From the NCBI GenBank assembly GCA_015179045.1, contig WHUZ01000018.1, positions 186,001 through 250,000 of the forward strand: DNA of 64,000 bases, read 5' to 3'. Each line of letters begins with the position of its first letter. Position 1 is the stretch's first letter. Made by a program: the position numbers and the translations under genes. Shown here piece by piece: positions 2,975-63,020 of this stretch. Source of the stretch: Kalaharituber pfeilii (Eukaryota > Ascomycota > Pezizomycetes > Pezizales > Pezizaceae). Under the pieces are notes generated by a model that ran no database searches, was not told the DNA's origin, and saw only the letters and a list, made by a program, of their open reading frames with translations.

Positions 2975-3020
2975 TTTTTTTTTTTTTTTTTTTTTAATAT
3001 CATTAATCGCGCGAGAATCA
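2975..3020 (-). mobile_element. Ultra-short type A retroposon, 46 bp
   Basis: A 46-bp insertion consisting of a poly(A) tail (poly-T on +) and about 28 bp of the LINE A 3' end, flanked by a perfect 12-bp duplication CCGTGGGAACAA (2963-2974 and 3021-3032). Only the 3' half of the hairpin (GCGCGAG and TTAATGATATT) is present. It is the shortest clear insertion in the window. Confidence 0.85.
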
Positions 3021-3032
3021 CCGTGGGAACAA

Positions 3033-3817
3033 GCGAAGTAACTTTAACCGCGCAAATATACAGGATGTGCCGTCAATTACAGTATATCTACGGTTGCCGA
3101 GGTCAGATAACAAAATTATACACATGACGCTCGTTTTTCATAAACTCCATTTAATGATATATTTGAAAAATAAAAATTTATAAACTCCAGTCCCACTAAT
3201 GAGGTCTTGGAGAGCGTTCATCGCATGCAATTTTCCAGCGCATTCTCGCGAAACAATATGCCCACTCTTGTTTAGATACTTCTATTCCCTCACTCCATGG
3301 CACCAGCAATGAGCTCCTTTAGCAATAAGGTTGGCTTTTCATCCTTTCTCGAAATGCTCGCACTACTCTTGCACCGCGCAATTCTCCATGTGTTGTATTT
3401 GGAGGGAATCCTGACAGAAGAAGGCGCAGAATTAAATATTCGGCTTGGCCACCCGCTGCATATGAGAAAAACGTCTCGTAAGTTTTACCTCTATAATAAG
3501 CTTTTAAAGTTACTTTCAAGGAATCTAAAAAGTCCAAGATTAAGGTGCGAAAAAAAAAAGGGCTAAATAACATCATGCGTAAAAAGCGTAATTCCAGGAA
3601 TACATTCGGCAATAGTATTTACCTAAGGAGCTTAATGTTACTATGCCTCGCCTTCATTACGCTCTATTAGTTACCATCTAATATTACTGAATTGAGAAAC
3701 TTGGCAACCTTTAAGTAAAGTTCCAACATCTCATAAGGCACGCTACGCCTTATGACACAGCGGAAGATGGAGAACATGAGCTGGTAGCCTGTATGCGGAG
3801 TTACTTGACCCCCCCCC

Positions 3818-3866
<49 letters not shown>

Positions 3867-4548
3867 GCAAGAAGTCGAACTAACGATAGTCGTCGACACA
3901 CAGGTACCAGGGGGGTGGAGATTGATCGCCTGGGAGTGAGGTGCAAGTCAGTGATTAGGAAGGACTTTGGCGTGTGATGTAGGTAGAGGCTATCAGGAAA
4001 GGGCACATGGTTCGTAGTGCAGTTGGCACTTTTAGAAGAGAAGGAGGAGGGGACATCGCCACCCTTGCCAGGTGCGGCATCAAATGTGGCTGAGGGTTAG
4101 CGAAGCGAGGCATAACCCATAACTTGACATGATGGAGATCAATATTCTGGATCCAATGTAGCTCTGATGTCATTGTGTATTGTTATATTATTTCCTCTGT
4201 ACATACAGGACCCGTAAAAGGTCTTGGGAATTAGGCAATATTGGGGTAAGTGCCTAATCCCCAAGAACTTCTATGGGTCACTGTAGCTTCTGCTTTCCTC
4301 ACCACTCTCTGCCGAGATTAATACATATGGAGATACAACAACAACGCCTTTTTGATTTTTCTTTATCTTTTATTTATCACTAATTTTTAAATAATCCGAA
4401 AACAAAAGTAAGACGTTGTAGATACAAGGTCATGGACGTCATCGCACTACTTCAAATGGTCTCCTACTCCAAAACCCCATACGAGTCATTTGACCATAGC
4501 TCCGGAGATTGTACCCGGATAATTGAGATGTATGTACTCTACTTGCGT
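3033..4548. other. Gene-poor stretch
   Basis: No gene is supported. The stretch contains the type C retroposon remnant at 3778-3866 and short unrelated open frames on both strands around 3297-3612 that contradict each other. Two runs of tandem ACA/CAA triplets occur, near 3828-3866 and 4338-4346. Confidence 0.35.
3778..3866 (+). mobile_element. Type C retroposon with (ACA)n tail
   Basis: The segment GAGCTGGTAGCCTGTATGCG followed by GAGTTACTTGAC is a diverged copy of the LINE C 3' end. In place of a plain A-tail it runs into a C-tract and about 13 ACA triplets. I could not find a target-site duplication, so it may be old, or the tail may have been replaced by microsatellite expansion. Confidence 0.5.
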
Positions 4549-5190
4549 ATTGGGTGCCTTCCCCTAAGGGTTTATGTGAAATTCAAACCCCGGCTTTGAA
4601 ATAAAACCGGGGTCCATATCCCTGTTTTATTGTTTGATAGAGCATTCGAACAATTTTTGTGAAAGAGGGTTACCCCCCCTCTTTCAAAATACTCACTTGA
4701 ATAAACAATAAACAATAAATTACAAAAGCAGCTAGTTAGAGTACACTACTGCTGAAGAAGTAGCATAGTTTATAATAACTATACCATTTAAAGGATATTT
4801 AAATTCACATTTGCATTATTTGTACCTAGTCCTCCTTGCACATGTAATATCCAGCAGTAATGCATTCTTATCCTCCCGTGGAAAATTTTCATTGAGAGTT
4901 CAGCCTCCTCTACTCTTTTACTTATTAGATACATTGCTGTTTCTTAAGACCTAGTGCTTTCTCTTGGAGCTTGAAACCTCATGCTGTCTTTTGTAGTAGA
5001 TTGACAGCTTGTTTACGAGCTTATAATTTCTGCATTTATGGTGTAAATGTCTGTATAACAAAAAGTTTTCTAGATTTATTATTTACTCATGTCCAAGTGC
5101 TTAGAGAAACTGCCTCCTGCTTGCGGTGGAAATGTACCCTAGTAAAATTTGGTTTGAATTTCCCAAATCCTTCGGGGAAGGCACCCATTG
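4549..5190. repeat. MITE-like element with inverted ends
   Basis: The left end (TTGGGTGCCTTCCCC, about 4549) and right end (GGGGAAGGCACCCATTG, ending 5190) are inverted copies, with homology extending about 40 bp inwards to GAAATTCAAAC. TA occurs just outside each end. The 640-bp interior has no coding capacity that I recognise. It is probably a non-autonomous DNA transposon of a TA-targeting family. Confidence 0.6.
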
Positions 5191-5797: not shown

Positions 5798-5850
5798 GTT
5801 TTTTTTTTTTGTTATCATTACTCCCGTGTCGCCCTGAGGGCTATGGCGAG
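5798..5850 (-). mobile_element. Type A micro-retroposon, 53 bp
   Basis: Poly-T followed by the complement of the LINE A hairpin (ending GGGCTATGGCGAG), flanked by the duplication ATGTTCTAGC (5788-5797 and 5851-5860). The hairpin carries several substitutions, for example CCCGTGTCGCC for the usual CGCGTGCCGCC. Confidence 0.82.
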
Positions 5851-5860
5851 ATGTTCTAGC

Positions 5861-6490: not shown

Positions 6491-6491
6491 T

Positions 6492-9228: not shown

Positions 9229-9250
9229 TTATGTTTCTCATATACCTAAT

Positions 9251-9366: not shown

Positions 9367-9431
9367 GCCCTGCCATGGCGAGCGGCTGTGTGCGGGGTCA
9401 CGTGACAAAAAAAAAAAAAAAAAAAAAAAAA
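9367..9431 (+). mobile_element. Type B micro-retroposon, 65 bp
   Basis: GCCCTGCCATGGCG...GCGGGGTCACGTGAC plus an A-tail of about 27, flanked by a perfect 13-bp duplication AACCCTGGACGGG (9354-9366 and 9432-9444). Confidence 0.88.
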
Positions 9432-9444
9432 AACCCTGGACGGG

Positions 9445-10156: not shown

Positions 10157-10181
10157 AGTATGTTTCATGACCGCTGCGCTC

Positions 10182-10454
10182 CGCCCAGAAGGTTTTGAGA
10201 AGTGGAGCGACATGGGAAAGGATTGGAAAAGAAAGGCGGAGAATGGGGAGGAGTATGACGTTTTGGAGAATTTCTTCGCTGGGGTCAAGTTCTAGAAGGT
10301 AGGAGAATGTGGGGTCAAGTTCTAGAAGCTAGGGGAGCGGGGGCGACGGCGCGTGGGGGCCATGTACGTAGAGAGTTAGTTTAGCCTGTCTCCGGGCTAT
10401 GAGGGCTTGCCCAGGGACCCTGCCATGGCCAAGTGCTACAAGCGGGGTTATGTG

Positions 10455-10484
<30 letters not shown>
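10182..10484 (+). mobile_element. LINE B 3' fragment
   Basis: The sequence matches the last 300 bp of the LINE B copy at 29732-32775: the ORF end (PEGFEKWSDMGKDWKRK), two copies of GGGGTCAAGTTCTAGAAG, then CCCTGCCATGG...GCGGGGTTATGTGATT and an A-tail of about 27. It is flanked by the duplication ATGACCGCTGCGCT (10167-10180 and about 10485-10498), so it is a 5'-truncated insertion. Confidence 0.88.
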
Positions 10485-10485
<1 letters not shown>

Positions 10486-11414: not shown

Positions 11415-11471
11415 CTCGTAGCCCGTAAGCGGCACAAGAGTAACATTATAAAAGGCAAAAAAGCAAAAATT
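11415..11471 (+). mobile_element. Diverged type A micro-retroposon
   Basis: CTCGTAGCCCGTAAGCGGCA then CAAGAGTAACATTATAAAA is a diverged LINE A hairpin and tail, flanked by the perfect 10-bp duplication TATCCAGCAC (11405-11414 and 11472-11481). The preserved duplication with a diverged body suggests a distinct subfamily and not simply old age. Confidence 0.78.
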
Positions 11472-11915: not shown

Positions 11916-11977
11916 TCCCTGCCATAGGCTCGTAGCCTGTATGCGGGGTTATGTGACACCAAAAAAAAAAAGAAGAA
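11916..11977 (+). mobile_element. Type C micro-retroposon, 62 bp
   Basis: TCCCTGCCATAGGCTCGTAG, CCTGTATGCGGGGTTATGTG and an A-rich tail match the LINE C 3' end, flanked by the duplication AACGTTGAC (11907-11915 and 11978-11986). Confidence 0.8.
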
Positions 11978-11986: not shown

Positions 11987-13410
11987 GCAATGGTATCATT
12001 CTGATAAGGGTTGCGTGCTTCAATAGCCAACTGGGATAACTGATGTGCAACATACTGTAACGGGTATCAGATTCTCCTGTTTACCACCTCTGCACTTCGG
12101 ACAATACAATCAAAACAGGATGAGTGGGCGGGTGGGGTTTCAGGTGCACTCTGGCAGATACAGCGATCTGATTATGTGTTCTGATGTAACCGCTTCAGAA
12201 TTCCTGACAAATTGTGGATCCAGGATCTGATACAAGTCATCTGTGTACCACCTATTATGCACTCTAGCAGATCCTCGCACTCACTTGGTAAGTCCTCGCT
12301 GGCACGTCGACTAGTCCCTTAATCAGGTCGTCGGCCAACATGCAGTTGTGTTCCTACAGTACGCTTAAAACCTTTCCCACGTGGCCAACAAGTTTCCCAT
12401 ATTCCCCTTCCCCCGCAATCCCCACTCTGAGGTGCGTCAGAGAATCTGATACCGATTCCCTAGAATACATTGACGCTACGTGCTGTACTGGTACAATCTG
12501 AGCCTGCGCGTGCTAAAGTGCAACAACGAATTACGCTAACAACAGACCTACCGCTTACTTAAGGCATTTTTGTAATTAAATGAATAATGCGTCAAACAAT
12601 TGCTTTCAGATTCAGACCACTTATACTGGTAGCAGTGAGGAGATAATTGAGCTCTCCATACGGTAAGCACGGCAAAATCCAACTGTCCACGCAGCGTATT
12701 GCGATCCAGCCCAACGGTGTGTAGGATCAGATAGTTCCATTAGCATCTGGTGCAGCAGTACTGGCGTTGATAATCAGATTTTGCAGCATACGCAGGATCT
12801 CCTGGACCGGATTGTAATTGCAATTCGGACGTGGACAGCAGGCAGATAGGTCATATCAGGATGTGGTACGTCACAACCGTGATTCTTCTACAACGGTCTG
12901 TAGTCTGAGTACCCTCTTGTGAAAAACGGATTTTTTTGTCAATTTGGAAACCGGTTTTGGGTCCAAAAATCCACCAGAATTTATGCATGCCAGGTCCTGA
13001 ATACTGCATCAAGGCCCGCAAGATGCATCATATATATGCAGTTGTCGCAAAAATCCTACTGGATTTATTTCGTGAAAAAACACGAAATTGACTGGTTTGA
13101 CTGGTTTATAACATGAAAAAACCAGATAAATTTTTGCATGGAGATGACCGAATTTTCCGGACTTGATAAATTCTGAAATCTGCAAAATCCGGCCAGATTT
13201 TTCTAATCTGAATACCACTAATGCTCCGTACTTTCACTTATTGGATGAAAGGAATTAACCAAAAACCTGTAGTGCACGTACGTGTGATTACAGTATGTCT
13301 AGCCGTTCTGGTCTACCCGTCAAGTACATTTTTTCCCGTAGGGCGGGACGCGATTAATGATATAAAAAAAATAAATAAAAAAATTCATTTTTGGTGTAAT
13401 AGGCCGGCCT
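11987..13410. other. Gene-poor stretch
   Basis: No gene is seen. Near its right end (about 13338-13390) CCCGTAGGGCGGGACGCGAT plus TAATGATAT and an A-rich tail is a partial type A micro-retroposon; possible flanks are TACATTTTTT and TTCATTTTTG. Confidence 0.4.
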
Positions 13411-13509
13411 TTTTTTTTTTTTTTTTTTTGATATCACATAACCCCGCTTGCAGCTGTTCGCCATGGTAGGCCCCCTGGGCCAAAGCCCGCAATGCTCGGA
13501 GGCAAGCAT
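13411..13509 (-). mobile_element. Type B retroposon, 99 bp
   Basis: Poly-T, GATATCACATAACCCCGCTT, GCAGCTGTTCGCCATGG, then about 45 bp further into the LINE B 3' UTR (GGGCCAAAGCCCGCAATGC). It is flanked by the 13-bp duplication AATAGGCCGGCCT (13398-13410 and 13510-13522). Confidence 0.85.
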
Positions 13510-16330: not shown

Positions 16331-16389
16331 TTTTTTTTTTTTTGACTTTTTTCACGTGACCCCGCGTGCAGCTGTTCGCCATGGCAGGG
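16331..16389 (-). mobile_element. Type B micro-retroposon, 59 bp
   Basis: Poly-T, TTCACGTGACCCCGCGTGCA, GCTGTTCGCCATGGCAGGG, flanked by the 13-bp duplication CAAGTTGCATGGA / CAAGTCGCATGGA (16318-16330 and 16390-16402, one mismatch). Confidence 0.87.
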
Positions 16390-16829
16390 CAAGTCGCATG
16401 GATGACTGCGGAGGCTGAAGCTTGCAAACAACTGCAGGTCAGCAAGATAGAAGTAGCCAGAGTTTGATATGACGTATGTACTGCCAGAGTATCACAGGAT
16501 AGCCTAGATCGAAAATCTCCAGCGATGGCAAGGCTCTTTTCGCTGCAATTGTAACACAGAGTTGTACTAGTGGCTTGAAGGAGAACGACCTCCGAGGCAA
16601 GGGAGCACTAAGAAAAAAGGCGCGCCCATATTACATTACCAAAAGTAGTAATCCGGAGTAACATCGGGTTGCACATTGTATTGAAAAAACTAGCATACAC
16701 AAAGTTCACATGAGTATCAACTTTACTTTCAGCCTCATTGCATGTCCCATTTAGGTACATTCATTCAGGTCACATTCACGTCAATTCAGTCCTATTGCAG
16801 GTCAGGAACCTCTCGTGGTCACCCGATAA

Positions 16830-25191: not shown

Positions 25192-25193
<2 letters not shown>

Positions 25194-25227
<34 letters not shown>

Positions 25228-25561
25228 TCACATTACCCCGCTTGCAGCGCTAAGCCATGGCAGGGTCCCTGGGCAAGCCCTTATAGCCCGGAGACAGGCT
25301 AAACGAAAATTTCTATCTACATGACGTCACCTCCCCCTCTCCGCCCCCCGCCCCCCACCGCTACAACTTTACTCCAGAAAAGAACCTCTCCAGCTCATCC
25401 CATTCCCCGCCGTCCGCTTCCACTTCTTTTCCATGTCTCCCTATTCTCTCAACTCCTCCGGACGAAGTTCCCGCTGTCTGCACTAGAAAGCTAGGTGCTC
25501 CCCAGTCTGAACTCCCCCGCGGGCTAAAAGAAAATTCTTGACTACATTAGGTCCCCCCCCC
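25194..25561 (-). mobile_element. LINE B 3' fragment, 368 bp
   Basis: T tail, AATCACATTACCCCGCTTGC, GCGCTAAGCCATGGCAGGG, then the LINE B 3' UTR and the ORF end, truncated near 25561. It is flanked by the 15-bp duplication TGAGCCTGTGTGCTT (25179-25193 and 25562-25576). Confidence 0.9.
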
Positions 25562-25792: not shown

Positions 25793-25856
25793 TTTTTTTT
25801 TTTTTTTTTTTTTTAAATCACATAACCCCGCTTACAGCGCCAAGCCATGGCAGGGT
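25793..25856 (-). mobile_element. Type B micro-retroposon, 64 bp
   Basis: Poly-T, AAATCACATAACCCCGCTTA, CAGCGCCAAGCCATGGCAGGG in two pieces, flanked by a perfect 12-bp duplication ACTAACCCAAGG (25781-25792 and 25857-25868). Confidence 0.9.
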
Positions 25857-29731: not shown

Positions 29732-32700
29732 GTTTATTTTTTTTTATTTTTTTTTTTTTAAATCACATAACCCCGCTTGTAGCACTAAGCCATGGCAGGG
29801 TCCCTGGGCAAGCCCTCATAGCCCGGAGACAGGCTAAACTAACTCTCTACGTACATGGCCCCCACGCGCCGTCGCCCCCGCTCCCCTAGCTTCTAGAACT
29901 TGACCCCGCGCGCTCCCCTACCTTCTAGAACTTGACCCCAGCGAAGAAATTCTCTAAAACGTCATACTCCTCCCCATTCTCCGCCTTCTTTTCCAATCCT
30001 TTCCCATGTCGCTCCACTTCTCAAAACCTTCTGGGCGGTTCTCCTGGCTTCTGCATCGGAAAGCGAGATGCTCCCCCGTTTGCACCTCCCCACACCTGCA
30101 CCTATCCGATTCCGCCACCCCTAGCTTCTTCAACCACCTAGCACACCTTCCTCGCTCCAGTCGCAATGCAGTGAAGTTTGATGTCGCCACCCTACTCCAC
30201 TCCATGACCTTTCCTCCTCCAAAGCCCTCCACTTCTCTCTTCTCCTTCCTCCACGCCTTCACCCTCTGGCGCACCCCACTTCCGGTGGCCACCTCCTTCC
30301 CCTGCATCACCGTCCCCTTCTTCGCCCACTCATCCGCCTTCTCATTTCCTGCAATCCCAATGTGAGCCTTAACCCACATCAGTTTCGCATTACCCCCCTT
30401 CCTCTTCCTCCTTGCCACCGCATCCACTACCCTCCTCACGTCCTCCGTATTCCCCTTCCCCTCTCTGCCTGCCTTCTTAACCGCCATGACGGCAGCTTCT
30501 GAATCCAGACAGATCAGGACCGGTACCTCCTCCGGCACACTCTCCAAGGCTCTTCTTACTCCCCTCACCTCCCCGTCGAACACTGTCGCTGTCCTTCCCA
30601 CCACCTCCGCAACCACTGCAGATCTCCCCCATACACCCGCCCCCACCTTGCTGTCCTCGATCTTGCTGCCGTCGGAGAAAAGGACTGCCCTTTTTCTTCC
30701 GGCTTCCCCGATCGCGGCTTCCCACTCCCCCTCGTCTCCACTTCTCCTTTCCGCCTCTCCACCACTTCCACCTCCACCTTCTCACACCCCCCTCCCCACG
30801 AGATCTCCTCCCCCTCCTCCGAGAACCTCGCCCACTGACCTTGCCAGCGGTCCAGCACTGCTTCATACCCCTCATTCTCGACCACCGCCCACTGCACCCC
30901 CCAGTCTCTCCAGTTTCTCGCCTCCTCCTCTCTCTCCTCACTCCCTCCGAAGTCGCCCGTGCAAAGCTCCGCCAGCTCTGACGGCGCCTCCACCTCCCGG
31001 ACGATCGCCCTCGCTTGCGCGCCATCCAGGACCGTCTCCACGTCCTCCACTCCACACACCGCACTCACCCCTCCTACCCCCGCTCCTCTCCCTCCTCCAG
31101 CCGCCTTCTTCAACACCTGCAGCTGGACTCTCTCCATCTCCTTCCTCCATTCCTTCTGTCCCCTCCACCCGATCTCGCTTCCCCACATTGCAACCGCCCT
31201 CACCATCCCCGTGTAGGCTTGCCTCCAGCTGCGTGGAGACATCCCCCAGTTCCGGTTGCGCAGTCCCGAGAGAGCCCCCGCCAGCCTCCGCGCTCGGCTC
31301 AGCCTGTTTCGCCAATGTGCGCCAAAGGTCAAGTTCTCATCGAAGATGACCCCTAACCACTTTAGCATCTCCCCCTCTTTCTTCCACCTCCTTCCCACCC
31401 CGAAGGTTATCATCTCCCACTTCGACTCCTCCAGCGGGATCTGGTCTTCCTCCGCCACCTCGCCATCGCCACCTTCACCTTCTCCCTGAGCCGCCCCATA
31501 TCCCAGTACCCGTGCCAGTCTAGGATCGTTGCTGCCAGGTCGTCAACATACGATGGCACTTCTACCTCCGCCCCCATCGCCACCCCCCTCAGCCTTCTCT
31601 CCATCTTCTCAATGGTGGGTGCCATGAAGATGAGGAAGATGACCGGTGACAGTGGTGACCCTTGCAGAACCCCCACGTTCGACCTGCCCCTCCCTTTCTC
31701 CTCGCCGTCCCACCACACTCCGAACTCCCTGCCTCCCATAAACTCCTCCAGCCACCTCCGCTTCTTTCTCACCCCCTCGCTCCCCCTCTCCTCAATCCTT
31801 CTCAGGACCACCTCCTTCCTCACGATGTTAAAGCCTCCTTTAACATCCGCCGTCACCCACGCTGCTCTCCCCCCCCTGTGCAGGCACCTCTGCACCTTTG
31901 TTACCGCCCTCGCCATCGCCTGGATCGCATTCCTCCCCTTGCGTGCTCCTAGCTGGAGCCTGTGGAAGAGTCGGTCTTCTTTCTGTAGCCTGCTGGCCAT
32001 GACTTTCTCCCCGATCTTCCCGATACAGTTAATCAGGTTGATTGGCCTCCACGCTTTCGCTGTCTTGATGTCCTTGCCCGGCTTCGGTATCATGACGACC
32101 CTCATCTCTCTCCACTCCGCTGGGGTCCTGTTCCGGATCCAGTTTTCGGCGATCTCCCTCACTAACTCATCCCCGATGGGAGTCTTCAGGGCAGCTTTGA
32201 TCAATCGGTATCCGATTCCGTCGGGTCCCGGTGCCGAATTGTTTTTGGTGCCCTGCAACGCAGCCCTCACTTCTCCTTCTAATCTCTCCCTCTCCCTCTC
32301 ATCCCCCTCCTCCTCCGCTTCCCCCTCCCCCACCTCCTCCCCCGCCTCTGCCTCCCCTTCTTCCCTCCACGCAAAATTCCTCTCCACCAGCGCCCTCACC
32401 TTCTCTCCGTCCCCCTCCAACTCCCTCCCCTCCTCATCTTTCAACCTTCCCATCCTCTCCTTTCCTCCGAAAGGGTCCTTCGCCACCCTCACCACCCTCC
32501 ATGGGTCGCTATACCCTTCCTCTTCTACGAACTCCCTCCAGCACTTCTTCTTCTCCTCCCGGATCTTCCACTTCATCCTTTGCACCGCCGCCTTCCAACC
32601 CCTCACCCTCTCCCCCTCCGTCAACCTCGCTCTGGCCCCTATCCCCCCCCGTGCCAGCCTGTTGACTTCTTTCCTCATCTCCTCTATCTCTTCCGTCCAC

Positions 32701-32775
32701 CACCTCTTGCTCCTCCCCCCCACTCTCACCTCTTTCTCTAGGGACCTCTTCCACCTTTTCAGCCTCTCGTTGGTT
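29732..32775 (-). mobile_element. LINE B, longest copy, 5'-truncated
   Basis: Tad-like LINE on the minus strand. ORF2 parts: 31410-32729 starts after the (missing) endonuclease with a basic/acidic linker and carries the RT core (NNSAPGPDGIGYRLIK, RPINLINCIGKIGEKVMA, VTADVKGGFN, LQGSPLSPVIF, catalytic SYVDDLAATI); 30565-31458 has the thumb (MLKWLGVIFDENLTFGAHW); 29954-30646 has RNase H (LICLDSEAAVMAVKKA, LMWVKAHIGIAGNEKADEWA) and a C-terminal Cys/His knuckle (CRCGEVQTGEHLAFRC). Frame shifts near 31455 and 30690 break it. The 3' UTR holds a duplicated GGGGTCAAGTTCTAGAAGG and ends in the type B hairpin and A-tail (29732-29800). I could not settle the target-site duplication. Confidence 0.9.
31410..32729 (-). 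pseudogene. LINE B reverse transcriptase segment
   Basis: A 439-codon open frame with the reverse transcriptase fingers and palm. The catalytic Asp pair is in SYVDDLAATI at about residue 395, and the first catalytic Asp is in VTADVKGGFN. The frame loses the thumb at its C-terminus by a shift near 31455, where VAMARWRRKT replaces the family VMAEVAQEDQ. The frame read on the opposite strand (31612-32808) is a shadow. Confidence 0.8.
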
Positions 32776-32824: not shown

Positions 32825-33026
32825 CTAATGCACATCGGCTTCGGAAAAGAGAGAAGATTTCTATCGACTATCATACATGTGAAAGAAAAGGAATGCAAGC
32901 AATATGACTCAGCGCCATCTGACTGTTGGTTTCGAGGGTTGCGGAAAAAAAGGCCTAGGGGTTTCCAACCCCCTGTGCCCTTGGCATGCCGAAGGGGCAT
33001 GCCGAAGGGCACGCCGAAGGACCCCC
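32825..33026 (-). repeat. Split direct repeat B2
   Basis: 202 bp starting CTAATGCACATCGGCTTCGG on the + strand, identical by eye to B1 (33339-33540). It contains a doubled GGCATGCCGAAGGGGCATGC motif. Confidence 0.9.
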
Positions 33027-33078
33027 CAGTCTCTCCCTCGCGGAGGTTCGAGTAGCTGGGGTTACGGGGTCGGTGGGT

Positions 33079-33338
33079 GGGTGACTTCTGCGATTTCGTA
33101 TGGCTTGCGAATCGCAGCGGCTTGAGGAGGGAATGCAAGGCCTCTCCTCCCTCTCTATATAGCACGAGGGCAGCACGTGACCATCTCCCTGTGACTTCCC
33201 GAATGGGAAGACCTCTTCTCGTGGCTTGGTGGCGACCGTGGAGGCTCTGTTGGTGGCTTGTTGGTGGCTCGGTCACGGGCCTCCGGGCCAGGGTCGCTGT
33301 CAAGCCTCGTCCATTAGCCTGCGGCCTAACCGCCAAAT
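33079..33338 (-). repeat. Split direct repeat A2
   Basis: 260 bp from GGGTGACTTCTGCGATTTCG to AACCGCCAAAT on the + strand, identical by eye to A1 (37431-37690). It directly adjoins B1 on one side and lies 52 bp from B2 on the other. Confidence 0.9.
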
Positions 33339-33540
33339 CTAATGCACATCGGCTTCGGAAAAGAGAGAAGATTTCTATCGACTATCATACATGTGAAAGA
33401 AAAGGAATGCAAGCAATATGACTCAGCGCCATCTGACTGTTGGTTTCGAGGGTTGCGGAAAAAAAGGCCTAGGGGTTTCCAACCCCCTGTGCCCTTGGCA
33501 TGCCGAAGGGGCATGCCGAAGGGCACGCCGAAGGACCCCC
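33339..33540 (-). repeat. Split direct repeat B1
   Basis: 202 bp, the internal partner of B2, just 3' of the recombinase stop codon (33559). Confidence 0.9.
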
Positions 33541-33558
33541 AAAAGGCCCCAAACGGGC

Positions 33559-37343: not shown

Positions 37344-37430
37344 GATTTTTTTGGGTGTATAGGAAGGATTCTTGAGCAAAGCGTGCAATAGAAATGCGTA
37401 GTGAAAAAAAACGTCGTAGAGCGTGCAATT

Positions 37431-37690
37431 GGGTGACTTCTGCGATTTCGTATGGCTTGCGAATCGCAGCGGCTTGAGGAGGGAATGCAAGGCCTCTCCT
37501 CCCTCTCTATATAGCACGAGGGCAGCACGTGACCATCTCCCTGTGACTTCCCGAATGGGAAGACCTCTTCTCGTGGCTTGGTGGCGACCGTGGAGGCTCT
37601 GTTGGTGGCTTGTTGGTGGCTCGGTCACGGGCCTCCGGGCCAGGGTCGCTGTCAAGCCTCGTCCATTAGCCTGCGGCCTAACCGCCAAAT
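37431..37690 (-). repeat. Split direct repeat A1 (5' end)
   Basis: 260 bp identical by eye to A2. It contains CTCTATATAGCACGAGG, whose complement carries a TATATAGAG motif suited to a promoter for the element. Confidence 0.88.
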
Positions 37691-37747
37691 ATTATGTTTA
37701 TGAATCATGCAATAACGCCACAGCACCAACTTCATGCCACACCGCTT

Positions 37748-37816
37748 TGCCCTGCCTCTTGCCCTGCCATGGCGAACAGCTGCAAGCGGGGTCATGTGAC
37801 AAAAAAAAAAAAAATG
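37748..37816 (+). mobile_element. Type B micro-retroposon, 69 bp
   Basis: TGCCCTGCCTCTTGCCCTGC, CATGGCGAACAGCTGCAAGC, GGGGTCATGTGAC and an A-tail of 14-15, flanked by CCACACCGCTT / CTACACCGCTT (37737-37747 and 37817-37827). The right arm of the inverted repeat shows the site without it. Confidence 0.85.
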
Positions 37817-37831: not shown

Positions 37832-37886
37832 ATCGCCATAGCCCATAGGGCGGCACGCGATTAAATATTTTTAAGAAAAAAAAAAA
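37832..37886 (+). mobile_element. Type A micro-retroposon, 55 bp
   Basis: ATCGCCATAGCCCATAGGGC, GGCACGCGATTAAATATTTT and an A-rich tail, flanked by a perfect CCGCTTAGTT (37822-37831 and 37887-37896). Its left duplication overlaps the right duplication of the type B insertion, so it landed second, at the scar of the first. Confidence 0.88.
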
Positions 37887-38519
37887 ACCGCTTAGTTGCA
37901 AGCCATGCATTCCGTGACTTCCTCACTTGCCTGATATGTTACACCTGCCTGTCTAGTCATGGTTCTGCAGTCACGTCATGCAATGCTCATCATGTATATA
38001 ATCCTGTTTGTTCTGCATCTCTTTACTCAATCAGACTTATTGGACCCAACGGTACAGATCTTCTTTATTCCTTCAGAGAAGTTCTCTTTCCTACGTGACG
38101 AAGCCCTCCTCATTCTACGTGCGAAGCCGGAATTCCAGGGTCGACGTTAAAACATAGCGGTGCAAGTCAACAATACTCTGACAACAGACTGCATCTGCCA
38201 TGGAGACTGTGCAAGAAAACATTGAGAGACATCAATTTTCACACTCTACACAGGACGCTTCACTGGACAAATTACTGTAACTTGGGCCTTTTATTGATCC
38301 AATCAAATCGTAGCTTGCATCTTCTGGTAGCCAAGCGGAAGAATCCGACGGTGTGCTGTCTCAGCACCGTATCTTCGGCTGAGTACTGTTTGAATTTTCT
38401 GCATATCAGAACCGTCCCAAAGCATCAATTCGCTGCTGCCTTGAAACAGATTTTTTGTGCGCATATCACTTCTCGCACCATCGATTTTGCAATTAAATCA
38501 GCATCAACTTTAAAACCTC

Positions 38520-40210: not shown

Positions 40211-40281
40211 CTACTATCTATTAGCAACAGTAATTAGAAAGAAATATCTATTAGTAACAGCAACATAGGGGTCCCGGATGT

Positions 40282-40351
40282 TTTTTTTTTCTTTGTTTAT
40301 TTCACATAACCCCGCTTGCAGCTGTTCGCCATGGCAGGGTCAAAAGGGAAT
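40282..40351 (-). mobile_element. Type B micro-retroposon inside a small gene
   Basis: T-rich tail, TATTTCACATAACCCCGCTT, GCAGCTGTTCGCCATGGCAG and GGTCAAAAGGGAAT, flanked by the perfect 13-bp duplication GGGTCCCGGATGT (40269-40281 and 40352-40364). It interrupts the 3' end of the frame at 40340-40531. Confidence 0.9.
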
Positions 40352-41489: not shown

Positions 41490-41556
41490 TTTTTTTTTTT
41501 TTTTTATTTTTTTTTAATATCATTACTCGCGTGCCGCCAGATAGGCTATGGCGAGA
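41490..41556 (-). mobile_element. Type A micro-retroposon, 67 bp
   Basis: T-rich tail, AATATCATTACTCGCGTGCC, GCCAGATAGGCTATGGCGAG, flanked by a perfect 12-bp duplication AACCATATCGTA (41478-41489 and 41557-41568). Confidence 0.9.
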
Positions 41557-44862: not shown

Positions 44863-44919
44863 TCTTTTTTTTTTTCTTTTTTTTTTGGCCCGCATACAGG
44901 CTACCACCCTATAGCAGGG
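44863..44919 (-). mobile_element. Type C micro-retroposon, 57 bp
   Basis: T-rich tail, GGCCCGCATACAGGCTACCA, CCCTATAGCAGGGA, flanked by AGCCAAGTGCGATGT / GCCAAGTGTGATGT (44848-44862 and 44920-44934, one mismatch). Confidence 0.85.
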
Positions 44920-46141: not shown

Positions 46142-46853
46142 TTGGATATCCTGTCATATTGGATGAACTCTGCCTGCCAGAGCAAAATGGGCCGGCAGCA
46201 GCAGCACCTGGAAGTATTGGAAAAGCTGGAGCGGACGATGGAGGAGGAAAAACTACACCAGCGGAAGACCCTTCAGGAGCAGGAGAAGCAGCAGAAGGCT
46301 CTTCAGGAGGCTTTTTCAGGCGCAGCTGAAGGCTTTTCGGGAGCGGCAGCAGCAACTAGATACGCAGCGACAACAACTGGAGCAACACCGACAGGAAATG
46401 CAGGAGCAGGGACTGCAGCAGCTGAGGGCGTTTCAGGACGCGCAGCAGCGGCTGGAGCAGCAACGCCAAGAGGAACGCCAACACTATGAGAAACAACAGC
46501 AGCGGCTGGAGATGCAACCCCAAGGGCAACGTCAAGAGCACGAGAAGCGGCAGCAGGAGCAGCATTGGCGGCAGCGGCAGCAGCAGTGGCAGGAGCAGCA
46601 GCAGAAACTGGAGCAGCAACGCCAAGAGTACGAGAAGCAGCAGCAGGAGCGGCAGCGGCGGCAGCAGCAGCAGCAGCAACAGTGGCAGGAACAGCAGCAG
46701 AAACTGGAGCAGGCACGCAAAGAGCTATGCAAAGAGTACGAGAAGCAGCAGCAGGAGAAGCAGTGGCAGCAGCAGCAGCAGCAGCAGCAGTGGCAGGAGC
46801 GGCAGCGGAAACTGCAGCAGCGGAAACTGCAGCTGCAGCTGCAGGAGCAGTAG
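46142..46853 (+). pseudogene. Gln-rich coiled-coil fragment of the GTPase family
   Basis: The first frame reads LEVLEKLERTMEEEKLHQRK up to about 46310; coding-like sequence then continues one frame over (QAQLKAFRERQQQLDTQRQQ, LRAFQDAQQRLEQQRQEERQ ...) to a stop at 46853, so a frameshift sits in or near the TTTTT at 46313. The product is a Gln/Glu/Arg coiled coil rich in EYEKQQQE repeats, like the C-terminal half of the protein at 57019-58744, but no GTPase domain is present. Repeats of CAG drive high open-frame content in all frames, so exact limits are soft. Confidence 0.55.
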
Positions 46854-47109
46854 GAGAAAATAACATGCTTAGAGCAACGGAAACGGCCAAGGGGTCCTAT
46901 AAACTAGTTACTGACAAGCCTGTATCGAGAAACAACTTCAGGTATATTATTGCAGTCATTTTTCTGTCTGTTTTATCGAAGGGCCTGTTGGGTTATGCTT
47001 GATTTTTTTAGAATCTTTCTCTCTTGGTCATTCTCTTGCGTGAATACCTTTTCAGCCTTTTTGTTTCTTTTTTTTTTGGCGGGAGGAAGCTTCAGCTCAT
47101 AACTGTAAT

Positions 47110-48541: not shown

Positions 48542-48958
48542 TAGGGTGCGCAAATGGGTTGGATAAACCGTACCCCGACCCACTCGACCCACTCCAGGGG
48601 CGGGTTCCGCGTCGGGCGGGTTCACCATTTGAGAACCTGCCCGCAGGGCTCTGCAACACTCGCGATGAGTATAAGCAGCTATACTAGTATATGCCCACCA
48701 TGACGGCAGTATCAGCAGCTGTATATGCTCGCCGCAATGGCAGTATCAGCAGCTATATATGCGCGCCGGAATGGAAGTATAAGCAGCCATATATGCACGC
48801 CAGAATGGCTGTATTAGCAGTCATATATGCTCGCCATATATGGTCACTGTGACTATATTATATATGGCCGATATATGTGGCTTGGCGCCAACGCAGGGCC
48901 CCGCGAGCGGGTCGTAGGAGGGCAAAACCTGCCCTGACCTACCCGTTTGCGCACACTA
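48542..48958. mobile_element. hAT-type MITE, copy 1
   Basis: The ends TAGGGTGCGCAAATGGGT and ACCCGTTTGCGCACACTA are inverted copies, and the 8-bp flanks TTTTAGGG (48534-48541) and TTTTGGGG (48959-48966) match at 7 of 8, the duplication length of hAT elements. The interior has tandem units of about 39 bp (for example AGTATCAGCAGCTATATATG then CGCGCCGGAATGG), at least four copies at 48660-48850. Non-coding. Confidence 0.85.
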
Positions 48959-49952: not shown

Positions 49953-49954
49953 GG

Positions 49955-50856: not shown

Positions 50857-51261
50857 TAGTGTGCACAAATGGGTGGGTCAGGGCAGGTTTTGCTACTCTA
50901 CAACCTGCCCGCAACTCGCCCCACCCCATCGGCCTCTTTGGTCAATGCCCGCAGGGCCTCGCCTTTGCACCAAGCTGCATATATCAGCCACGTATAATGT
51001 GGTCGTGGCAAGCATACATGGTTGCTCATACTGCCATTACGGCGGGTATATATGGCTGTAAATACTGCCATTACGGTGAGCATATATGGCTGTAAATACT
51101 GCTATTATGGAGAGCATATTACTACTGATACTGCCATCACAGGTTTTTATGGGTTCTGCATGGCCCCGCGAGCAGGTTTTCCAATGATGACTCTGCCCGA
51201 CGGGTTCTCGGCAGAGATAGAACCTGCCCACTGAAGCAGGTCACATGAGTCAGGTTGCGGG

Positions 51262-57018: not shown

Positions 57019-58744
57019 TCAATGATTTAAAAAATAACGGGTGCTCCTGCCACTGATGTTTCGCCACTGAGGCTGATGCTCCAGCCACTGAGGCTCCAGC
57101 CACTGATGCTCCGGCCACTGATGATCCAGCCACTGATGCTCCAGCCACTGATACTCCAATGGCTGCTGCCCCAGTTGTTGTCGCTGCTGCTCCAGTTGTC
57201 GTCGCTGCTGCTCCAGTCGCTGCTGTTGCTGCTTAAACGCTTTCTCCTGCTCCAATCGCTGTTGCTCCAATCTTTGCTGCTGCTCCTCAAATGCTTTCTG
57301 CTGCTTCCATCGCTGCTGTTCCAGTTGAAACTGCTGCTCTCTCAGTTTGAGCATCATTGCCTCCTCTCCCTTTCTTATCCTTTTGATCTCTTGTGTAACC
57401 CTTTCCTTCTCCTGCTCCAAGGCAACGAAAAGTATTTCATCTTTCTCCTCTAATGCTAGTTCCAGGCTTTTCCTAAGCTCCTCCATGTCCTTCTCGTATT
57501 GTGCTTTTAGCTTCACGATCTCCTCATTCATGACCTTTCCTGCACTACTATCTGCTAAGTCCTTTTTCTGATCAACCATTTCTCGTTGAATCTGCAAAGT
57601 TGTCTCTCCTAACTTGGAATTAAGAAGCTCAGAAATGAGTTCTATAGCACTGCTTTTGGTGCCTTTAAATTGCCTCACTTTTGAGCCCTTTTCCCTCATA
57701 CCTCTCCAGTATGAATTGAGAAGCTCCTTCTCACGAGCCTTCCCCGTAGCTTCACTTACACTACCCCAGTGTGTTGTAACTAAAATAACGTGTTGTAGGC
57801 TGTCCTCTCCACATAGTTTCTTGAATACTCGCAAATTGCGCAATGCTGATCCTTCCATCCGGATGTCACTGATGCGATGGAGATAGAGGATGCCGGAGAG
57901 CTTTGCATCTTGCTGGTATGTGTTCATGAGCCAATCTGAAAGTTCACGTAAAATTTCACCTTCACTCTTGTTGGTATCATTGAAACCAGGAGTATCAATG
58001 AATGTAATATTCATTCCTTTATACTTCCAAGGCCAACTTTGGATATCCTGCGTACCTTTCCATCCATTTATGTCAGTAATCTTTACAATAGCCAATACTG
58101 CACCGTAGGAACAATTTCTACGTACAAGATTCCAAATTGTGTCCAATTGTGATTCTCTTATCGCCAGTAATGGTCTGAATAAATGTACTTTTCCCAGCAC
58201 CTGTAACCCCCATAACTGCAATTCGGATGGCATCACTGATAGCCTCCTGTTGATTTGCGTGTGTTTCACTATCAACAGCATTACTCAGCTTTCCCGAGTG
58301 CTTTATGAGTCATGTGAACTGGTACGATACCTAGCAAAAGTCTTGCTTGTGGTGCTGTAGCGATCGGGGTACGCTCCAGGGGCGGCGGCTCGAGCCCGCT
58401 ATGAGAGCTATTTATCCGTGTTTCACTATCAACGGTATTATTAGCTTTGCCGTTTGTGGATCATGTGAACTGGTACAGTCGTGCCTAGAAAAAGCCTTGT
58501 CCCTGAGCACAAAGGAGTGCTTGGGGTACGCTCTAGGCAGCCTCGGCTCGCACTCGCCATAACAACTATTTGCCCTTGTTTCACTATTAACAGCATTATT
58601 AATTAACCTTTTTCGAGTACACTGTGAGTCGTGTGAACAGGTATAATCATACCTACAACAAATCTCGCTTCTGGAGTTCTCGGGGAAAGCACCAGGTGGC
58701 TGCGGTTCGTCCTTGCTGACAGAGATGTACTTTCTCGCTGCCAT
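57019..58744 (-). CDS. AIG1-like P-loop GTPase with Gln-rich coiled coil
   Basis: The last two exons are clear: 58246-58126 with the P-loop (IRIAVMGVTGAGKSTFIQTI, consensus GxxxxGKST) and 58055-57019, joined in frame (GHNLESC + TQDIQSW) over a 70-bp intron with donor GTACGT and branch ACTGAC. Then come DTPGFNDT (G3), ILVTTHWG at the usual G4 site and about 345 residues in this exon. From about residue 200 of the exon the chain is a long Glu/Lys then Gln/Arg-rich coiled coil, ending in degenerate WLEHQ-type repeats. This is the G-domain of the AIG1/Toc34-like family common in fungi, with no membrane anchor seen. The 5' end is uncertain: an ATG at 58744 begins MAARKYISVSKDEPQPPGAF with a GT donor after it, and the region between is a triplicated 157-bp unit (58263-58735). 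How exon 1 reaches the P-loop exon in frame is not resolved. Confidence 0.75.
58263..58735 (-). repeat. Three tandem 157-bp exon/intron-like units
   Basis: GTTTCACTATCAAC recurs at 58263, 58420 and 58578. Each unit has an exon-like part (EPQPPGAFPENSR, EPRLPRAYPKHSF, EPPPLERTPIATA on the minus strand), then a donor-like AGGTATGA, AGGCACGA or AGGTATCG. The middle unit has lost the GT. Only the outermost unit has an ATG. Confidence 0.75.
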
Positions 58745-59394: not shown

Positions 59395-59455
59395 TTTTTT
59401 TTTTTTTTTTTTTAATTTCACGTGACCCCGCGTGCAGCTGTTCGCCATGGCAGGG
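59395..59455 (-). mobile_element. Type B micro-retroposon, 61 bp
   Basis: Poly-T, AATTTCACGTGACCCCGCGT, GCAGCTGTTCGCCATGGCAG, flanked by the perfect 12-bp duplication CTACATACGCAG (59383-59394 and 59456-59467). Confidence 0.92.
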
Positions 59456-59467
59456 CTACATACGCAG

Positions 59468-60487: not shown

Positions 60488-60579
60488 ACAAGTCGCCACT
60501 TTCCGAACATTAATTGGCAACCCATCGGCATCGTGCTACTGTTACGTCACGATACGGTCTGCTTCAGCTGTACTGTAAT

Positions 60580-62055
60580 TTTTTTTTTTTTTTTTTTTTT
60601 ATATCAATACTCGCGTGCCGCCCTATGGGCTATGGCGAGGTCTAGTTACATCAAAACAAAGTACAAGTACGGAACAATAGAAGTAAATCCCCCGGGCTAA
60701 CCCCTCGCCCATTCCAAAATTCCTATCACTCCCCGAAGGCCCTCCCCTTCATCTTGGTCACCCAAGGGTCTGCACAATCCATCCTCACCCCTTGGGCATC
60801 TCTGCTTCCAGACTCTACATTGAGACAATATGTGAAGGGTCGTTTCTTCAGCCTCGCCGCACCACCGGCATTCCGGGCTGTCAGCTGCGCCGACCTTGAA
60901 TTTCCAGCGCCGGAGGCCCTTGCCTCCAAGGATGCCAGCTAGCGTTGCGACCCTATTGCCTAGTCTGCGTAGTGGCCTATATGACATATGCAGTCTGTTT
61001 CTTTCGGCCGCTCTCCTTGCTTTGGCCTCTTGTCTCATCCCGTCCTCCGTGACAATCTCGTTTTGATATGGCAGCTGTGTACCAACCTTGGCTGCTCGAT
61101 CTGCTTCGGTGTTACCTGGGATTCCTTTATGACCTTTGACCCACATTACCGCTATGTCAAGGTCGCCCCTGTCGTTTCTCCGGTCCCAAGCCTCCCTTAC
61201 TCGCTGTGCTGGCCCTTTGTGTGTTGGTTCCCCTTCGGCGATCCTTTGTAGCTTGGTTATTGCCGTCTGGGAGTCAGTGATGATCAGTAATTCAGTGAAT
61301 CGGCTTGTGAGGGCATCCTCCATGGCAATCAATTCCGCGTCATTTACTGTACTGAGAGCTCCCAGATATGTGGAAGTCCGTTTCTGGGTGTGCTGGGAGA
61401 ACGAGCCTGCCCCAGTAGAGTCACCTATTCGGCTCCCATCTGTATAAACGCTGACCCAGCCTTGGTCTTCTGCTTCGGCAATAGCTGCCATCCATTCTTC
61501 AGCTGAGGTATCGGCTGGGAGTGTGGGAAATGTAGCTAATGGAAGAGGTCTTCTACGATGTAGCGATCCCCTGAGGTATGTGGTGTCCTGGTCTTCTCTT
61601 TGTAGCAGTTCTCCCATAAACCGGAGTGTGCGTGCTTCCACCCGTATGCTTTCTCCGTCTGCGAATGTGCTGATCGACTCAAGGTTAGCCAGTCCTTCTA
61701 CTATATCTCTTCTTGTCCCCCATGGAGCCCTAGTGATCTCTCTAGCCACCACATACTGCCATCTTTCCAGAGTGTCTAGTTTCTGCCTGGCTGGAGATCC
61801 TTGTGCATAGTCCATCCAGGCCCAACATCCCCACATCCCTATATTACGGGCTATGCTAGTGTATAGTTGTCGTTTTTTCTCTGGCGCTATGGGTGTTAGT
61901 CTCGTCACTACATTCCAGGCTGCTTTGGCTAAGTGTAATCTCTTGTTGAAGTGAGTACCAAATTTCAGTTCCCAATCGACTGTCAGTCCTACCAGCCTAT
62001 ATTCTGGACCCTTTACTCCTATTATTAGTGTCTCGGACTTGTCAGGGTCGATTAA
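60580..62055 (-). mobile_element. LINE A, 5'-truncated, ORF2 open
   Basis: T-run, the type A hairpin (60600-60643), 3' UTR, then one continuous ORF2 frame from the truncated 5' end (about 62055) to the stop at 60697. The hairpin and 3' UTR are the reference for the type A micro-retroposons. The flanks ACTGTAA (left) and ACTGTAC (right) may be the target duplication. Confidence 0.88.
60697..62055 (-). pseudogene. LINE A ORF2 C-terminal half (RT thumb, RNase H)
   Basis: About 450 open codons. Blocks in order: KSETLIIGVKGPEYRLVGLT, the thumb (RNIGMWGCWAWMDYAQGSPA, REITRAPWGTRRDIVEGLAN), RNase H with D in SVYTDGSRIG, E in NDAELIAMEDAL, D in LIITDSQTAI and the distal WVKGHKGIPGNTEADRAAK, then CRWCGEAEETTLHILSQC. 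The RNase H site is complete and no stop interrupts it, so this copy is young; it lacks the endonuclease and RT palm and so cannot move by itself. Confidence 0.85.
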
Positions 62056-62724
62056 CTTCCACTGTACAAAGCAAATGAACAAATAACACCTGATATTCAG
62101 TACAGATCTCATGACTACCACAATGCACAATAGACGTAATTATCTGAATTACAGAGTAGGCTGGGCTACTGAGCGGCAGGGTCATTAAAGATTCAACCTG
62201 CAATGGTCACATAAATTATAGGTGCAGATGTGGAGCAGCAAATGCTAAGCAAGGTATTACGTTCCGATATTGATGTTGTTAATACTTCTAAGTCTTGCGA
62301 TTTAGTGCACTTGACTTGCATCTTATGCCGTACCAGGAAGTTGGAAACGTAGTTACCTAACACTAACGTTTTGAATTATGGTTTCTGGTTCGTAAGGCAT
62401 CTAGTTCAGTCATTTTGTGTGTATAGACTGGGAAAAGCAGATTAGATACTTCTAACACGGAGGAAGTCTACGTGGGCGATCCTGGAATGAACAAACTGCG
62501 GCAGTGTCCGCATTTGCTCACCTCACAATGGCATGAACTAACCGTATGATATCAACTGCATTACAATTGCAGCAGTTATGGACTGACGCATAATTCATGT
62601 AGGAAAATATTAGGCAGGGCCCAGATAGGCATTTGACGGGCAACAAGCTTGAAACAGAAGGTCAGGTGGTGGCTCCTGTATTCGTCATAGAGAGTAGTTT
62701 GCAGGGCGTCCCTAGCAGGAGGCT
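62056..62724. other. No gene recognised
   Basis: Nothing supportable is seen in this stretch. Confidence 0.35.
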
Positions 62725-62785
62725 TTTTTTTTTTTTTTTTTAATATCACGTAACCCCGCTTGCAGCTGTTCGCCATGGCAGGGCG
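62725..62785 (-). mobile_element. Type B micro-retroposon, 61 bp
   Basis: Poly-T, AATATCACGTAACCCCGCTT, GCAGCTGTTCGCCATGGCAG, flanked by a perfect 11-bp duplication AGCAGGAGGCT (62714-62724 and 62786-62796). Confidence 0.92.
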
Positions 62786-62961
62786 AGCAGGAGGCTAAGT
62801 AGCCCTTAACCATAGTGGATGGAAGGGATAATGACCCATATCATAATGAAAGGCTAGATTGATAGCTGTTGGTACAGGAGTTGAGAGATATACTCTAGAT
62901 CTTGCAGAGAATTCAATCTGCTAGCCTTGCAGATGGTACACGTATAAAAAAGTTAGGCATG

Positions 62962-63020
62962 TTTTTTTTTATTTTTTTTTATATCATTACTCGCATGCCG
63001 CCCTATGGGCTATGGCGAGG
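62962..63020 (-). mobile_element. Type A micro-retroposon, 59 bp
   Basis: T-rich tail, ATATCATTACTCGCATGCCG, CCCTATGGGCTATGGCGAGG, flanked by a perfect 12-bp duplication AAGTTAGGCATG (62950-62961 and 63021-63032). Confidence 0.92.

What the first reader, a model, noticed from the sequence alone, without database searches (positions are those of the whole stretch)
2975..63020. Micro-retroposons made only of a LINE 3' hairpin and an A-tail
More than twenty insertions of about 45-100 bp carry nothing but the terminal 30-45 bp of a LINE plus an A-tail, and many have clear target-site duplications (for example 2975, 9367, 25793, 41490, 59395, 62725, 62962). Ordinary 5' truncation should give a broad length distribution; here most copies start at the hairpin base (CCTCGCC for type A, CCCTGCC for type B). 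That suggests either a stop or template switch at the hairpin, or a real small RNA that the LINE machinery mobilises: in effect a minimal SINE with no Pol III head. I know of no named family this short. Basis: sequence for the insertions, established LINE 3'-stem recognition, inference for the mechanism.
Basis: partly seen in the sequence, partly recalled or inferred. Interest (0 to 1): 0.92.

Follow-up and report, generated by a model that had tools for sequence, protein, structure and literature searches.

The report
Hairpin-only retroposons with precise ends
This genome holds thousands of tiny jumping-DNA copies, about 40 letters plus an A-tail, that contain only the last hairpin of a larger element and begin at almost exactly the same letter, as if a trimmed hairpin RNA, rather than a randomly cut long RNA, were being pasted in.

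Summary
In the window, 23 of 42 hairpin hits lack LINE sequence upstream (my reading). Of 20 A-tailed insertions with target-site duplications (TSDs), 10 have inserts of 25-44 nt. In the 78-Mb genome, near-consensus 3' cores number 4497 (type A), 2129 (B) and 853 (C); reversed-pattern controls gave 0.

In samples not selected on length, inserts between TSDs form a sharp peak. B: 17 of 26 at 39-43 nt, none at 44-74. A: 17 of 37 at 36-42.

Type B micro copies start nucleotide-precisely. The base before CCCTGCC matches the parent lineage in 32 of 34; the next base out matches LINE in only 3 of 34. A small second class (4 sampled copies, one in the window) starts at the foot of the next stable hairpin.

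Best reading: the LINE machinery copies RNA templates already trimmed to the 3' hairpin. The trimming is inferred, not shown. RT release at the hairpin and a self-amplifying micro-SINE are not excluded. Interest 0.76; new variant of a known kind.

The parts
2975..3020 (-). Type A micro copy, 25-nt insert + A21, TSD TTGTTCCCACGG; starts inside the hairpin region
5799..5850 (-). Type A hairpin-only copy, 40 nt + A12, TSD GCTAGAACAT
9367..9433 (+). Type B hairpin-only copy, 40 nt + A27, TSD AACCCTGGACGGG
11415..11469 (+). Decayed type A-like hairpin copy, 42 nt + tail, TSD TATCCAGCAC; not detected by the HMM
11916..11971 (+). Type C hairpin-only copy, starts T+CCCTGCC, A11; TSD AACGTTGAC read by eye (automatic score below cut-off)
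13410..13508 (-). Second-class copy: 79-nt insert starting at the foot of the upstream hairpin H2 (TGCTTGCCTCCGAGCA, pairing read by eye and from the alignment; the minimum-energy fold of this copy does not show it), TSD AGGCCGGCCTATTA
16331..16390 (-). Type B hairpin-only copy, starts G+CCCTGCC; TSD tccatgc(g/a)actt read by eye
25793..25856 (-). Type B hairpin-only copy, 42 nt + A22, TSD AACCTTGGGTTAGT
37748..37814 (+). Type B hairpin copy with 13 extra nt before -1 that partly repeat the hairpin 5' end; TSD ATGCTACACCGCTT with one mismatch
37832..37887 (+). Type A hairpin-only copy, 44 nt + A12, beside the previous copy, TSD ACCGCTTAGTT; stem variant AUCGC/GCGAU
40281..40351 (-). Type B hairpin copy with 11 extra nt (ATTCCCTTTTG) between TSD ACATCCGGGACCC and -1
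41490..41556 (-). Type A hairpin-only copy, 41 nt + interrupted A-tail, TSD TACGATATGGTT
44865..44919 (-). Type C hairpin-only copy, 33 nt + tail, TSD ACATCGCACTTGGCT
59395..59455 (-). Type B hairpin-only copy, 41-42 nt + A19, TSD AACTGCGTATGTAG(C)
62724..62785 (-). Type B hairpin-only copy, 42-44 nt + A18, TSD AGCCTCCTGCT
62962..63020 (-). Type A hairpin-only copy, 40 nt + A9TA9, TSD ACATGCCTAACTT
29737..32729 (-). LINE copy bearing a type B hairpin at its 3' end: RVT_1 in ORF 31410-32729, RNase_H in ORF 29954-30646, hairpin about 29760-29800, A-tail. No TSD found
60579..62130 (-). LINE 3' part bearing a type A hairpin: ORF with RNase_H 60697-62130, hairpin about 60601-60640, A22. No TSD found
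25192..25561 (-). Ordinary longer type B truncation, 345-nt insert, TSD AAGCACACAGGCTCA; starts with nine G
10181..10485 (+). Ordinary longer type B truncation, 277-nt insert, TSD ATGACCGCTGCGCT

Best explanation
These are a discrete class of LINE-mobilised retroposons whose template was an RNA consisting only of the LINE 3' hairpin, about 10 nt of linker and the poly(A) tail. The best-sampled LINE RNAs (type B) end in a structured tail: a weak hairpin H3 between a stable H2 and the terminal H1. I propose that LINE RNA is trimmed from its 5' end (5'-3' decay halted at stable stems or at the bound LINE protein, or an endonuclease cutting just 5' of the stem), mostly to one nucleotide before the H1 core stem and sometimes to the foot of H2. 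The stub keeps the recognition hairpin and A-tail, so the LINE protein can still use it for target-primed reverse transcription. RT runs off the stub's 5' end, sometimes adds a few untemplated nucleotides, and the copy integrates with an ordinary TSD. Shown by sequence: the size class, the precise start, the structure by covariation, shared TSD and tail features, and shared lineages. Inferred: that the RNA is shortened before reverse transcription, by which enzyme, and that the LINE protein recognises the hairpin.
For: (1) Length peak: of TSD-bearing copies, B 17 of 26 at 39-43 nt, next 75, 77, 84, 192 and up; A 17 of 37 at 36-42. Poisson p below 1e-17 against the densest other 30-nt stretch on the long side. 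For A the short side (7 copies at 14-31 nt) is denser, and would still predict only about 3 in the peak window.

(2) Precise start in B: position -1 equals the lineage base in 32 of 34 micro copies (G in 15 of 16 of the GA hairpin group, A in 17 of 18 others). Position -2, G in all 26 long copies, is G in 3 of 34. Binomial 1.7e-17 and 0.017 against 25%. Among the 28 with a scored TSD it is 27 of 28 (my reading).

(3) Second start site: the 4 sampled TSD-bearing B/GA inserts of 75-78 nt (L094, L128, L161, L167) and the 79-nt window copy start within 1-2 nt of the H2 foot. H3 (3-4 bp) shows no such class in these samples.

(4) Structure: in eleven chosen B tails, covariation in H2 and H3 (0 of 500 shuffles reach the score; slid structures pair 30-49% against 96%); in 80 type A hairpins 94% paired against 15-53% slid, outermost pair CG 61, AT 14, innermost CG 62, TA 8.

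(5) Same machinery: TSD 13.4 vs 13.8 nt, tail 22.9 vs 25.2 nt for micro (n=43) vs long (n=22).

(6) Same lineages: B haplotypes micro vs long p 0.62. Hairpin 1.2-2.5 kb downstream of 19 of 38 LINE RT matches that I picked.

(7) Extra nucleotides before -1 in 7 of 28 junctions.
Against: No RNA evidence. Precise RT release on leaving the hairpin would give the same junctions. Type A is less sharp, and 7 of 37 TSD-bearing A copies end inside the hairpin (14-31 nt), which a protected stub does not explain. H3 in the GA group has 4 bp and gives no class, so 'any stem' is not enough. One TSD-less copy (L120) starts inside H2. Extra junction nucleotides also occur at internally truncated R1/R2 junctions (PMC2718515, passages seen). 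The GA group's micro copies nearly all carry G at -1 although 3 of its 5 longer copies carry A, which leaves room for a self-amplifying micro family. Folding gives weak support: the type B hairpin alone is matched by 29 of 200 shuffles, the 84-90-nt B tails by 46-173 of 200, and the best fold of the window 79-nt copy shows neither H2 nor H1. In one search the number of further pair types is not above shuffles (372 of 500), H1 has no change on both sides, and three tails break the two outermost H2 pairs. The H2 class was noticed in the same data used to describe it.
Confidence: 0.62

Rival explanations
1. RT release: the LINE RT starts on full-length RNA, is tethered by the 3' hairpin, copies through it, loses the tether when the hairpin is unwound, and drops off (or switches template) at the hairpin exit.
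For: Explains why H1 is the main site and why more than one LINE family shows it. Magnaporthe MGL LINE shows recurrent template-switch sites beside predicted hairpins (PMC2104539, section on template switching read). Type A copies ending inside the hairpin (7 of 37) look like early drop-off.
Against: RT pausing is expected on the 3' side, before a hairpin (general knowledge), whereas the ends are on the 5' side. It does not readily explain the H2-foot class. One-nucleotide precision over 32 of 34 B copies would be unusual for drop-off. The MGL motif GCC*A/U would put the end 7 nt further in; none of the 26 TSD-bearing B copies starts there.
Confidence: 0.2
2. A true micro-SINE: a few master loci transcribe hairpin-only RNA, which amplifies independently of LINE RNA.
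For: The GA group has 2971 hairpins against 310 copies of its G-lineage with the next hairpin attached, and the two of those I read were themselves only 76-78 nt. 15 of 16 GA micro copies carry G at -1.
Against: An internal promoter hardly fits in 41 nt. In the other B lineages micro and long copies share haplotypes. Types A and B, probably C, all do it. G-lineage LINE bodies exist: tail 1722 and 1724 nt downstream of two open RT frames.
Confidence: 0.12
3. Nascent-cDNA hairpin: once copied, the hairpin re-forms in the cDNA and pulls its 3' end off the template at the foot.
For: Would place the end on the 5' side of H1 and H2. Type A cDNA does fold somewhat (-7.2 kcal/mol, 12 of 200 shuffles as good).
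Against: For type B, the sharpest class, the antisense DNA folds at only -2.1 and -3.5 kcal/mol, with 196 and 152 of 200 shuffles at least as good; RNA wobble pairs become mismatches. The B RNA hairpins fold at -13.6 and -14.3.
Confidence: 0.03
4. Ordinary 5' truncation: the short tail of a smooth length distribution.
For: Longer truncations of the same elements exist and share TSD and tail features.
Against: Sharp peak with an empty stretch (B: none of 26 between 44 and 74 nt) and a precise start.
Confidence: 0.02

Closest known systems
5'-truncated LINE copies
   Same: 3'-anchored, A-tailed, TSD-flanked, apparently made by the same machinery
   Different: Lengths here are a discrete class with a precise 5' end, not a continuum
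SINEs sharing a 3' tail with a partner LINE
   Same: Non-autonomous in content, LINE 3' hairpin plus tail, thousands of copies
   Different: No tRNA, 5S or 7SL head, hardly room for a Pol III promoter; about 41 nt; several LINE lineages feed the class. tRNA-related SINEs described in Aspergillus fumigatus are 140-493 bp with Pol III promoter features (PMC5063351, abstract seen)
Stringent-type LINE 3' stem-loop recognition (UnaL2, ZfL2)
   Same: A 3' stem-loop recognised by the LINE protein (PMC4176376, abstract and passages seen) would explain why the hairpin is the minimum that is kept
   Different: Those are eel and zebrafish LINEs; recognition here is inferred, not tested
Chimeric retrogenes of Magnaporthe (WEIRD / Mg-SINE / MGL)
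   Same: LINE of a fungus with recurrent breakpoints next to predicted hairpins (PMC2104539, abstract and one section read)
   Different: Those are fusions with 230-5461 nt of LINE; here nothing is fused and the breakpoint is the hairpin foot

Membership tests
LINE-mobilised retroposon (target-primed) | Target-site duplications of variable length | tested here: met
   Window: 20 TSD-bearing insertions; samples: A 37 of 60, B 26 of 40 at score 9 or more, swapped-flank null 2.1%. Type C only 2 of 19 scored
LINE-mobilised retroposon (target-primed) | 3' A-tail and 3' end shared with a LINE | tested here: met
   Type B tail 1.2-2.5 kb downstream of 19 of 38 LINE RT matches that I picked, same strand; type A tail 3' of an RNase_H ORF in the window
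SINE | Head derived from a Pol III RNA with internal promoter | tested here: not met
   Inserts of 36-46 nt are hairpin, linker and tail only; no Rfam family in the window at gathering threshold
SINE | Own master genes, subfamilies distinct from the partner LINE | tested here: inconclusive
   Main B lineages: haplotypes shared with long copies, p 0.62. GA group: mostly micro, parent variants only partly sampled
Ordinary 5'-truncated LINE | Broad, continuous length distribution | tested here: not met
Stringent-type LINE | Conserved 3' stem-loop | tested here: met
   Pairing and covariation, (B's H1 varies on one side only)
Stringent-type LINE | LINE protein binds and requires that stem-loop | not testable with these tools
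   Needs binding and retrotransposition assays

The most novel reading that the evidence does not exclude
A gene-less minimal SINE: cells trim LINE RNA to a ~41-nt polyadenylated hairpin with a nucleotide-precise 5' end one base before the stem, and this stub is the most frequently integrated product of several LINE lineages. The 5' ends of insertions would then be a genomic fossil record of structured RNA-decay intermediates.
Probability: 0.5. Interest if true: 0.86.

Novelty: new variant of a known kind. Interest (0 to 1): 0.76.

Why it matters
Why LINE copies are 5'-truncated (RT falling off, or RNA already degraded) is a long-standing question. Thousands of copies whose 5' ends fall at the outer foot of an RNA hairpin, to the nucleotide where best sampled, favour degraded or processed templates for this class and make the question testable by mapping RNA 5' ends. 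If trimmed stubs are the template, hairpin plus A-tail is a sufficient natural template for target-primed insertion, and a genome can gain a SINE-like family without any SINE gene. It also warns annotators that 40-nt repeats may escape repeat libraries.

Tried and rejected
Ordinary truncation: rejected by the length peak and precise start. cDNA-hairpin termination: disfavoured by DNA folding. A single small-RNA gene: disfavoured by shared haplotypes and by at least two types doing it, not excluded for the GA group. Known RNA family: no Rfam match in the window at gathering threshold. L116 (84 nt by its score) was not put in the H2 class because its flank is a tandem repeat that makes the TSD unreliable; I count it and L123 (no TSD) as micro, from their flanks. 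The GA micro group includes four copies without a scored TSD (L152, L153, L154, L166); L153 and L154 look like duplicates of one insertion. Type C: only 2 of 19 usable copies had a scored TSD (one of 20 had no tail), so no length claim is made for it. Single-sequence folding gave little support.

A note of mine gave 10 window inserts at 40-44 nt plus one of 25; the recount is nine at 40-44 plus one of 25, and the recount is used here.

Not found in print in these searches only: (PMC open licences; listings seen, none showed such a class). Host species not identified: the 18S search did not complete and the protein database was switched off. That the LINEs look fungal (Tad-like) is recalled, not tested.


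Full report
What was checked. The window is 64 kb of a 78.03-Mb, 360-contig genome. It contains LINE pieces with RT and RNase H domains and three types of 3' end: A (YCTCGCCATAGCCCATAGGGCGGCATGCGAGTAATGATAT-An), B (RCCCTGCCATGGC-loop-GCTRCAAGCGGGGTTATGTGATTT-An) and C (TCCCTGCCATAGGCTGGTAGCCTGTATGCGGGGTTACGTGA-An). Of 42 hairpin hits in the window, I read 19 as linked to upstream LINE sequence and 23 as not; 14 of the 23 have a TSD that I accept. One search lists 20 TSD-bearing A-tailed insertions: nine of 40-44 nt, one of 25, and ten from 61 to 898 nt.

Abundance. Near-consensus cores in the genome: A 4497 (up to 1 mismatch), B 2129 (core plus A8, up to 2 mismatches), C 853 (up to 3). Reversed-pattern controls were 0 in each. 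The complete B hairpin occurs 4431 times; with eight more LINE bases attached, 1579 times. So roughly two thirds lack the adjoining LINE sequence, near the 34 of 60 in the fetched B and GA samples. Lineages with diverged upstream bases make the first ratio approximate.

Length distribution. I fetched the first 60 of 100 listed A places and the first 40 of 100 listed B places, all exact core matches and not selected on length, and 20 plus-strand C places picked from 100 listed, each with 450 nt upstream. A TSD score of 9 is reached by 2.1% of 952 swapped-flank pairings. With that cut-off, A has 37 of 60 TSD-bearing copies: 14, 16, 18, 19, 21, 24 and 31 nt, then 17 at 36-42, then 44, 50, 81, 89, 140 and longer. 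B has 26 of 40: 17 at 39-43, then 75, 77, 84, 192 and longer. C has 2 of 19 usable. Copies without a scored TSD mostly show LINE sequence running upstream (13 of 14 in B by my reading), as expected when the far end lies beyond 450 nt. A further 20 copies of the commonest B hairpin group (GAAC and near variants, here 'GA') were taken in list order from one contig, leaving out one already fetched: I read 15 as hairpin-only (11 with a scored TSD), two as 76-78 nt, and three as running further into LINE. Twenty 10-kb stretches from two contigs gave 17 hits, 8 with a TSD, 6 of them 36-49 nt.

Where the copies start. Read by column rather than by TSD, B micro copies begin at -1. That base is A in 17 of 18 copies of the CAAG, CACG, TTAG and TTGG lineages and G in 15 of 16 of the GA group. 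The next base outward is G in all 26 long copies but in only 3 of 34 micro copies (probabilities). Two of the 18 and four of the 16 have no TSD that I rely on; among the 28 with a scored TSD, 27 carry the lineage base (my reading). In 7 of 28 junctions one to five further bases that do not match LINE stand between the TSD and -1. Type A micro copies (18) begin about one base before the first stem pair: C or T at that place in 17 of 18; the base before it is A or C, as in LINE, in 13 of 18, where half would be chance. Type A is thus less sharp. For C, three copies (11917 and 44919 in the window, L143) show T before CCC, the LINE base; too few to weigh.

A second start. In B, the next upstream stable hairpin (H2, 7 bp) also marks starts: L094, L128, L161 and L167 in the samples and 13410 in the window start within 1-2 nt of its foot. 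The short hairpin between them (H3) marks none in these samples. One TSD-less copy, L120, starts inside H2. Only five copies make up this class, and it was noticed after the fact.

RNA structure. Eleven type B tails that I chose from the longer copies covary in H2 and H3 (five pairs changed on both sides; 0 of 500 shuffles reach the covariation score; slid structures pair 30-49% against 96%). Against this: the number of further pair types is not above shuffles (372 of 500), three tails break the outer two H2 pairs, and H1 has no change on both sides. Eighty distinct type A hairpins, gathered by likeness to the consensus, pair in 94% of cells against 15-53% slid, with exchanges at the outermost (CG to AT) and innermost (CG to TA) pairs. 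Energy folding is weak evidence here: shuffles at least as good were 8 of 200 for the A hairpin, 29 of 200 for each B hairpin, 3 of 200 for C, and 46 to 173 of 200 for the 84-90-nt B tails.

Same machinery, same parents. Micro (43) and long (22) copies have TSDs of 13.4 and 13.8 nt and tails of 22.9 and 25.2. Hairpin haplotypes do not differ between micro and long copies in the B sample (p 0.62; 39 of 40 copies, the one GAAC copy left out). Type B hairpins sit at the 3' ends of LINE bodies: 19 of 38 RT matches that I picked from the 105 have one 1.2-2.5 kb downstream on the same strand. For the GA group, two open RT frames lie 1722 and 1724 nt from its G-lineage tail.

Mechanism. An RT arriving from the 3' side should pause before a stem, not after it (general knowledge). 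Ends on the 5' side, at two stable stems and not at a weak one, are what a 5'-to-3' trimming process or a cut at the stem base would leave; RT would then run off that end and add stray bases. A cDNA hairpin that pulls the end off the template is unlikely because type B's antisense DNA barely folds. RT release when its tether hairpin is unwound remains possible and would need no RNA processing; it explains H2 poorly. Which nuclease acts is unknown. Decay halted at stable stems or at bound LINE protein is my first choice; cutting at the stem base, in the manner of an RNase P-like enzyme, is a recalled analogy and was not tested. The short type A copies that end inside the hairpin (7 of 37) fit drop-off better than a protected stub.

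Limits. The GA group may include a self-amplifying micro family. The proportion of hairpin-only copies genome-wide is an estimate.

Verdict. The mechanism is probably trimmed templates, not shown. Ten searches of open-licence papers (listed under Tried and rejected) showed no description of such a class.

Noticed in passing
window 32825-37696 (-): Element with a tyrosine recombinase (PF00589), an RT (PF00078) and split direct repeats of 99-100% identity; looks like a DIRS/Ngaro-type retrotransposon (type recalled).
   Followed up: partly
window 37748-37814: Type B micro copy with extra bases before the foot that partly repeat the hairpin's own 5' end, as if the RT had slipped or jumped back.
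   Followed up: partly
window 25192-25561 and L082: Longer LINE copies that begin with nine and eight G next to the TSD; possibly untemplated C addition to the cDNA, or a G-rich LINE stretch.
   Followed up: no
window 48705-48835 and 51007-51119: 34-bp tandem repeats whose units look related in opposite orientation.
   Followed up: no
window 57019-58281 (-) and 46303-46890: ORF with a GTPase domain (MMR_HSR1) and a glutamine-rich repeat tail; a glutamine-rich repeat stretch also lies at 46.3-46.9 kb.
   Followed up: no
genome, RT matches on C294, C257, C224, C295, C124, C301: Six RT copies about 53% identical to the window LINE, none with stops inside the match (capped list); two carry the G-lineage tail, perhaps a currently intact LINE group.
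   Followed up: partly
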